Part shown: positions 22,653 to 23,040 of the stretch, in pieces
How the letters are laid out: every line of letters begins with the position of its first letter
How positions within the stretch are numbered: position 1 is the stretch's first letter
Assembly: GCA_016788525.1 (NCBI GenBank)
Contig: JAEUPD010000117.1
Span: 1-44,036, forward strand
DNA length: 44,036 bases
Direction: 5' to 3'
Source of the DNA: Rubrivivax sp.
GTDB taxonomy: Bacteria; Pseudomonadota; Gammaproteobacteria; Burkholderiales; Burkholderiaceae_C
Notes under the pieces: model-generated
What the model saw: the letters and a program-made list of their open reading frames with translations, nothing else
The model's database searches: none
What the model was told of the DNA's origin: nothing
Made by a program: the position numbers and the translations under genes

Positions 22653-23040
22653 AGTTGGGCCGGGCGCGCTGGCGCACCGGTGCGGCTTCTGGTCATCTCT
22701 TGGCTGAGCTGAGTTGAACGCAGAGCAGGCAGGTCCGACCGTCGTTGTCGTCCGCGCATGGAAGTCGCGGCGAGCAGAGGTCCGGGTGGCCTGCCCTGCC
22801 GCGCCCGAGGGCGATCGGCGCCCCGGAGCGACGCGCCGGGGACGGGCTCGCGGCACGCGAGCCGTATGGCCGACGGTGCACCCGTCGGCCGTCAGCCGCG
22901 CCAGGCGCAGCCTGGCGCGGACGCCGGGCCTCGCCTTCGGGCACGGCAGGGCAGGCCACCCGGGTGTGTGCACGCCACGCCATCTGCGACAGTTGCCGCC
23001 CAAAGGCGGTACGCCGCTGCCCTGCATCACTCGTCGGCTG
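22653..23040. other. Gene-free convergent gap with structured element
   Basis: No credible gene lies between the ends of the HAD gene and glcF. Short open frames here run through a large palindrome and so are artefacts. The central 182 bases are the multi-hairpin element described separately. The flanks (22653-22781 and 22964-23040) show no further clear structure. Confidence 0.7.
22782..22963. repeat. Palindromic element with potential five-way junction
   Basis: The outer arms 22782-22814 and 22931-22963 are complementary over 33 positions, with 31 Watson-Crick pairs, one G-T pair and one mismatch. After a small internal loop, CGGCG (22816-22820) pairs with CGCCG (22922-22926). The enclosed bases form four consecutive hairpins: 22821-22841 (6-bp stem), 22845-22863 (7 bp), 22868-22890 (9 bp) and 22896-22920 (11 bp, GCA loop), with only 1-5 unpaired bases between them. 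The whole element therefore folds into a compact five-way junction. It may be a non-autonomous repeat, a structured RNA or a DNA cruciform. It has no coding sense and no match to tRNA or attC core sites. Confidence 0.8.

What the first reader, a model, noticed from the sequence alone, without database searches (positions are those of the whole stretch)
22782..22963. Compact five-way-junction element between HAD gene and glcF
An outer stem of 33 positions (31 Watson-Crick pairs, one G-T, one mismatch), extended by 5 more pairs, encloses four perfect hairpins of 6, 7, 9 and 11 bp with almost no unpaired bases between them. High GC alone makes weak hairpins common, but a nested design of this precision over 182 bases is not expected by chance. 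It lies in a gap between convergent genes and carries no gene. It could be a non-autonomous mobile repeat mobilised as single-stranded DNA, a structured RNA, or a strong bidirectional transcription barrier.
Basis: partly seen in the sequence, partly recalled or inferred. Interest (0 to 1): 0.75.

Follow-up and report, generated by a model that had tools for sequence, protein, structure and literature searches.

The report
Mobile-looking five-way-junction DNA repeat family
The folded stretch beside glcF is one copy of a gene-free repeat family of a Rubrivivax-like bacterium that folds into four hairpins on a long stem; its shape is kept while the letters change, so it looks like a small passenger element of unknown mover rather than an accident.

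Summary
In detail: window 22782-22963 folds into a 33-position stem around four hairpins (z -10.8 as DNA, -12.8 as RNA; 0 of 200 shuffles as good). It is not unique. A covariance model gave 44 hits in the own draft genome (lower bound), 3 in a sister species, 1 strong hit in a third and 1 weak hit in a fourth, of 81 genomes of the genus. The family is a mosaic: one core, conserved in its first hairpin, between either of two unrelated arm pairs; the third species has another arm pair. In one copy of each type 39-40 of 40 arm pairs form, 19-22 of them changed on both sides between types; in the core 19 of 46 pairs show two-sided change. G-T outnumbers A-C mispairs on the core-forward strand (24 to 8 distinct events), hinting at one strand acting single-stranded. 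Three sites, the window's included, lack the element in the sister species. Flanking genes face it with their 3' ends on 37 of 45 sides. Best reading: a new non-autonomous palindromic element. Its mover is unknown; a host RNA role is not excluded.

The parts
22782..22814 (+). 5' outer arm (type A arm), pairs with 22931-22963
22931..22963 (+). 3' outer arm (type A arm)
22811..22934 (+). five-way-junction core matched by covariance model R1 (E 4.7e-10; the window copy was itself one of the 28 sequences of the model)
22815..22820 (+). inner 5' strand of the closing stem; pairs with 22922-22927
22821..22841 (+). hairpin 1, the part most alike between species; the window copy departs at 3 positions from the motif searched
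22845..22863 (+). hairpin 2, variable stem with compensated changes in the family
22868..22890 (+). hairpin 3, loop of the TGNNN kind
22896..22920 (+). hairpin 4, variable stem with compensated changes in the family
22722..22781 (+). left outer module (the end seen beside type B copies), here joined to a type A arm, so the window copy is a chimera; outer limit approximate, by eye
22964..23040 (+). right outer module, partly shared with other type A copies; outer limit approximate, by eye
21954..22652 (+). HAD-like hydrolase gene (start approximate), 3' end faces the element
23041..24294 (-). glcF-like gene, 3' end faces the element

Best explanation
This is one copy of a lineage-restricted, gene-free, interspersed palindromic element. 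Each full copy has a five-way-junction core inside a long, nearly perfect stem whose two arms can be exchanged as a pair. Shown: dispersed copies, mosaic arms, a fold kept through two-sided changes between arm types and species, three sites without the element in the sister species, placement at gene 3' ends. Inferred: it spreads as a non-autonomous element moved in trans by an enzyme encoded elsewhere, which recognises the folded single strand in one orientation (core-forward; ssDNA or an RNA copy), and copies survive where they do little harm, downstream of genes. The mover is not identified.
For: 44 model hits in G000 and 3 in G071 (sequences the model was built from are among them); 48 core copies sorted by arm, 45 in G000 and 3 in G071. 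Type A and B arms around one core, composites, and chimeras such as the window's. Species G079: same 205-base architecture, 40 of 40 arm pairs, 20 of 40 changed on both sides against type A. Core covariation on 30 sequences: 19 of 46 pairs and 65 cells with two-sided change, 0 of 500 shuffles as high, slid controls 4 to 8 pairs (alignment fitted to the structure). G-T over A-C 24 to 8 distinct one-sided events, p 0.007. No element in G071 at the sites of the window, C14:6786 and C140:8606. 3' ends on 37 of 45 sides.
Against: No target-site duplication was recognised, and no transposase except the Y1 family was looked for; the one Y1 gene in G000 has other repeats at its flanks. The sites without the element are not polarised: G071 may have lost copies, and these gaps differ throughout. 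On the MAFFT alignment without G079 only 7 of 46 pairs show two-sided change, and one slid control reached 6; RNAalifold on the subfamilies gave 0 and 3. So most two-sided change lies between A, B and G079, few independent events. Palindromes can be mended from their own partner arm, which would mimic compensation (recalled, not tested). The G-T excess is modest: core alone 11 to 5, and 28 distinct other mispairs occur. Both neutral survival and a host role predict 3'-end placement.
Confidence: 0.6

Rival explanations
1. A host structured RNA or 3'-UTR element: copies are transcribed from neighbouring genes and the fold protects or processes mRNA ends or binds a protein; copies multiplied by recombination.
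For: Two-sided changes; hairpin 1 and the GCCGTCATCC linker kept in G079 while other stems differ; G-T over A-C; 3'-end placement.
Against: Presence differs between sister species at 3 sites; 1 copy found in 99%-complete G079 against 44 hits in G000; no Rfam match near threshold; no transcript data.
Confidence: 0.2
2. A bidirectional transcription barrier kept by selection between convergent genes.
For: 5 of 8 rows with a gene called on both sides are convergent (L099, a false hit, left out; C233 counted twice; the C14 left gene scored under my cut-off); very stable fold.
Against: No intrinsic-terminator pattern in 22600-23100; a plain hairpin would do, so the kept core is unexplained; strand asymmetry.
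Confidence: 0.1
3. A REP/REPIN-type element moved by a RAYT (HUH) transposase.
For: Palindromic, extragenic, mosaic, one-strand signal; a Y1 transposase gene exists in G000.
Against: That gene's 3.3-kb locus has no match to the family (best E 0.002, outside the elements) and shows other repeats (read by eye); no Y1 match in G071, which has the family but is only 76% complete; units of about 200 bases instead of 20-40.
Confidence: 0.06
4. A palindrome perpetuated by templated self-repair, with no selection on the fold and no mover; copies spread by ordinary recombination.
For: Arms stay near perfect although A and B arms are unrelated; chimeras seem joined at short matches or at the palindromic centre of hairpin 3 (by eye).
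Against: Linker and hairpin-1 letters are kept between species; dispersed intergenic placement is not explained.
Confidence: 0.08

Closest known systems
ERIC/RU-1 and YPAL/RU-2 (enterobacterial MITE-like repeats)
   Same: Gene-free, under about 200 bp, intergenic, highly base-paired, many copies (PMC2229807, passages seen)
   Different: Described there as long stem loops with target-site duplications; here a five-way junction with exchangeable arms and no duplication recognised. Sequence relation was not compared
REP / BIME / REPIN with RAYT
   Same: Extragenic palindromes in composite mosaics
   Different: REP units are 20-40 bp (PMC3733652, start of abstract in the listing) and RAYT genes are flanked by their REPs (PMC2817692, abstract); here units are about 200 bases and the one Y1 gene has other flanking repeats
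Correia/NEMIS elements of Neisseria
   Same: Inverted-repeat ends; RNA-level effects proposed (PMC2229807, passages seen)
   Different: 24-bp TIR with TA ends in the table seen; here about 41-base arms of unrelated types, without TA at the arm ends
Stem-loop repeat families of a 40-genome survey (PMC2267715, passages seen)
   Same: Structured, mostly intergenic repeat families are common (92 families)
   Different: [quoted passage not shown] a five-way junction with arm exchange was not in the passages seen

Membership tests
MITE (ERIC/Correia kind) | short, no protein-coding gene, dispersed copies in intergenic gaps | tested here: met
MITE (ERIC/Correia kind) | terminal inverted repeats | tested here: inconclusive
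   41-base inverted arms exist, but family modules go on outside them and the true ends are not fixed
MITE (ERIC/Correia kind) | target-site duplication | tested here: inconclusive
   none seen by eye at three sites compared with G071, whose gaps differ throughout
MITE (ERIC/Correia kind) | related autonomous transposon | not tested
   only the Y1 family was searched; no search for a gene with these ends was made
REP/REPIN-RAYT | RAYT gene flanked by the same palindromes | tested here: not met
   for the one Y1 gene found in a 73%-complete genome
REP/REPIN-RAYT | unit of 20-40 bp | tested here: not met
   about 200 bases
known structured RNA (Rfam 15) | match at gathering score | tested here: not met
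   window 22300-23300, L078:1-450 and L302:3400-3850: best hits 18.4 bits against 52 and 17.3 against 39, none in L302
intrinsic terminator | hairpin followed by a T tract | tested here: not met
   window copy only
integron attC | R and L boxes next to a cassette, integrase nearby | not tested
   considered from memory only

The most novel reading that the evidence does not exclude
A small mobile unit recognised by the shape of one folded strand: a kept junction core is the recognition body while the arms are exchangeable as pairs, moved through ssDNA by an HUH-like enzyme or through an RNA copy by a reverse transcriptase, which would make it a bacterial counterpart of SINEs.
Probability: 0.15. 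Interest if true: 0.8.

Novelty: new variant of a known kind. Interest (0 to 1): 0.55.

Why it matters
In the survey passages seen (PMC2267715) the usual structure of a bacterial repeat is one stem-loop or a double hairpin. Here a larger branched fold is kept while about half of its arm pairs and 19 of 46 core pairs change on both sides between types, and whole arm pairs are exchanged around one core. If one strand is recognised by shape, finding the mover would make shape-guided spread of a passenger element directly testable. The family also sits at many contig ends of this draft genome, so it matters for assembly.

Tried and rejected
Chance from high GC: rejected. Unique locus: rejected. 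Rfam: nothing near a gathering score. Plasmids (query: window element) and phages (query: G071 composite L078:60-400): no match. Viral contigs: 0 stretches for two strict patterns; a looser one gave 17, whose best model match was E 0.1. First relatives search: 27 of 61 genomes had a BLAST match at E up to 0.001, 26 of them other genomes with short weak stretches; 28 of those loci gave no model match better than E 0.1, so I took them as background. Hairpin-3 pattern with 2 mismatches: 66 of 81 genomes, most with few matches; 44 forward in G000.

Hairpin-1 motif: in the order 1 of 399 genomes, the own one, and no other genome of the genus was in that draw. In the genus with 3 mismatches 36 of 81 genomes have some match; exact ones are listed only for G000, G071, G079 and G006; the other genomes' listed matches carry 2 or 3 mismatches. 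27 of those loci were scored with the model and gave nothing better than E 0.8; the rest had no locus and were not examined.

RAYT link: rejected. Placing G071's own copy in G000: only repeats matched. C233 site: matched on one side only, unresolved. RNAalifold on MAFFT alignments A1 and A2 did not return the outer stem, I think because many copies lack the left arm. The G006 match (E 0.011, cut by a contig end) counts only as a candidate.

Papers: six searches showed in their capped lists (20, 10, 20, 20, 8 and 0 papers) none on such a repeat in Rubrivivax; no listed paper held that name. Three papers were opened: passages of PMC2229807 and PMC2267715, outline and abstract of PMC2817692. None was read in full; the library holds open-licence papers only.

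Full report
What is there. Window 22782-22963 folds as described: a 33-position stem (31 Watson-Crick, one G-T, one A-C), six further pairs past a 3-base bulge, and four hairpins. As single-stranded DNA it folds at -100.5 kcal/mol against -62.1, sd 3.6, for 200 dinucleotide shuffles, none as good; as RNA with flanks z is -12.8. None of 482 tiles of 182 bases of the window folds as well. It lies between a HAD-like gene and a glcF-like gene, both pointing at it.

A repeat family. A search of the own draft genome (73% complete, 268 contigs) with 202 bases gave 80 matching stretches, many of them two arms of one copy. Cores in fetched loci were sorted by arm type: 48 copies, 45 in G000 and 3 in G071. 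A covariance model of the core (R1, 28 sequences) gave 44 hits in G000 at E up to 0.1, some of them partial; only 44 candidates per genome were scored, so this is a lower bound. By the contig lengths, 38 of these 44 lie within 400 bases of a contig end. So the family breaks this assembly, and the true number is likely higher.

Mosaic build. Copies carry one of two arm pairs around the same core. Type A begins GCACAGACC, type B GCAGAGGT; further short modules lie outside the arms. Some loci hold A and B joined by a linker, with the two cores in opposite directions (L003, L026, L119). The window copy has the outer module seen beside type B joined to type A arms, so I read it as a chimera. Degenerate TGACT/CTGA-like repeats lie next to the outer ends in a number of copies (by eye).

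Other genomes. L077 and L078 lie on a contig titled MAG: Rubrivivax sp. isolate new MAG-215; L095, from G071, is identical to L077 over its 1541 bases. That the window host is Rubrivivax-like is inferred from this. Of 81 genomes of the genus 4 had model hits at E up to 0.1: G000 44, G071 3, G079 1 (E 3.7e-9), G006 1 (E 0.011, at a contig end); the stricter filters used for many genomes can lose weak ones. The hairpin-1 motif occurs without mismatch in these four only and, with up to 1 mismatch, in none of 398 other genomes drawn from the order, none of them from this genus.

The fold is what is kept. The G079 element has 205 bases, 40 of 40 outer pairs, the same four hairpins and a matching hairpin 1 and linker, but other arm letters. 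Taking one copy of each type (A from G071, B from G000, G079), arm pairs changed on both sides while still paired number 22 of 40 for A against B, 20 of 40 for A against G079 and 19 of 40 for B against G079; A and B arms agree at 16 of 40 positions, shuffles give 13.9, sd 2.8. These are good copies: the window's own forms 37 of 40 arm pairs, and the 14 full copies have 31 to 37 Watson-Crick pairs in 37. On the structure-fitted core alignment of 30 sequences 97.7% of cells pair and 19 of 46 pairs show two-sided change, with 0 of 500 shuffles as high and partner slides giving 4 to 8. On the MAFFT alignment of 28, without G079, the figures are 96.9% and 7 of 46, with 1 of 500 shuffles as high and slides of 0 to 6. 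RNAalifold found 0 and 3 such pairs within the subfamilies. So most two-sided change lies between A, B and G079.

One strand. If the fold mattered equally on both strands, one-sided changes should give G-T as often as A-C. Read core-forward, distinct events are 24 G-T and 8 A-C (p 0.007; cells 30 and 8), besides 28 distinct other mispairs. Core alone gives 11 to 5 and arms 13 to 3. Left out there: pairs whose commonest form is not Watson-Crick (such as a constant T-G pair, 28 of 28) and hairpin 2 of three misaligned copies. In core columns C to T and G to A occur 10 and 5 times in paired and 2 and 2 times in unpaired positions, too few to exclude a mutation bias. This favours one strand being used single-stranded, as RNA or ssDNA, and is modest evidence.

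Presence and absence. In G071 the same two genes flank 25 bases instead of 388. Of 30 glcF loci fetched, only the window's own and G071's hold the HAD gene. Copies at C14:6786 and C140:8606 are missing from G071 at matching places, where 126 and 76 bases stand against 326 and 375. A fourth site, C233, matched on one side only. The gaps differ throughout, so ends and duplications cannot be read and gain or loss cannot be told.

Where copies sit. A codon-based gene caller trained on the window called the nearest genes. Raw counts were 41 sides 3' and 10 sides 5'; the distance and score limits had dropped five more sides, three 3' and two 5'. I then removed one false hit in a coding region of another genome (L099, one side each) and genes counted twice at composites (C233 one each, C53 and C234 one 3' each). 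That leaves 37 of 45 sides 3' (binomial p 1.5e-5). In other gaps of at least 100 bases 3' sides were 16 of 46 in control loci and 12 of 28 in the window. Mostly right flanks are seen, because detected copies are cut on the left.

What it is not. No Rfam match near threshold; no terminator pattern at the window copy; the one Y1 transposase gene found in G000 sits among other repeats, and none was found in G071, which is 76% complete.

Judgement. A new family of palindromic repeats with a kept branched fold is well supported; non-autonomous mobility is likely but its enzyme is unknown; a host RNA role remains open. Compared with ERIC, YPAL, Correia and REP elements (PMC2229807 passages; PMC2817692 abstract; PMC3733652 start of abstract in a listing; PMC2267715 passages), the branched core with exchangeable arms is the new variant.

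Noticed in passing
G000:C202 around 7408-7740 (L127:1390-2364): A Y1 (RAYT-like) transposase gene with short repeats of another kind at its flanks (GGTCAGGTCTTCCATTTACC and GAGACCTGACCCC, by eye): a separate repeat system.
   Followed up: partly
L017, L021, L216, L225, L227, L228, L243, just outside the element ends: Degenerate TGACT/CTGA-type simple repeats lie next to the outer ends of a number of copies; they may mark preferred sites or arise at insertion.
   Followed up: no
L302:3524-3728 (G079): The G079 copy lies downstream of genes that look to me like alanine racemase and a release-factor-like peptidyl-tRNA hydrolase (from reading the sequence; no family search).
   Followed up: no
L125:1598-1759 and L024: Chimeric cores in which two different halves meet at the palindromic centre of hairpin 3, suggesting recombination at the hairpin.
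   Followed up: partly
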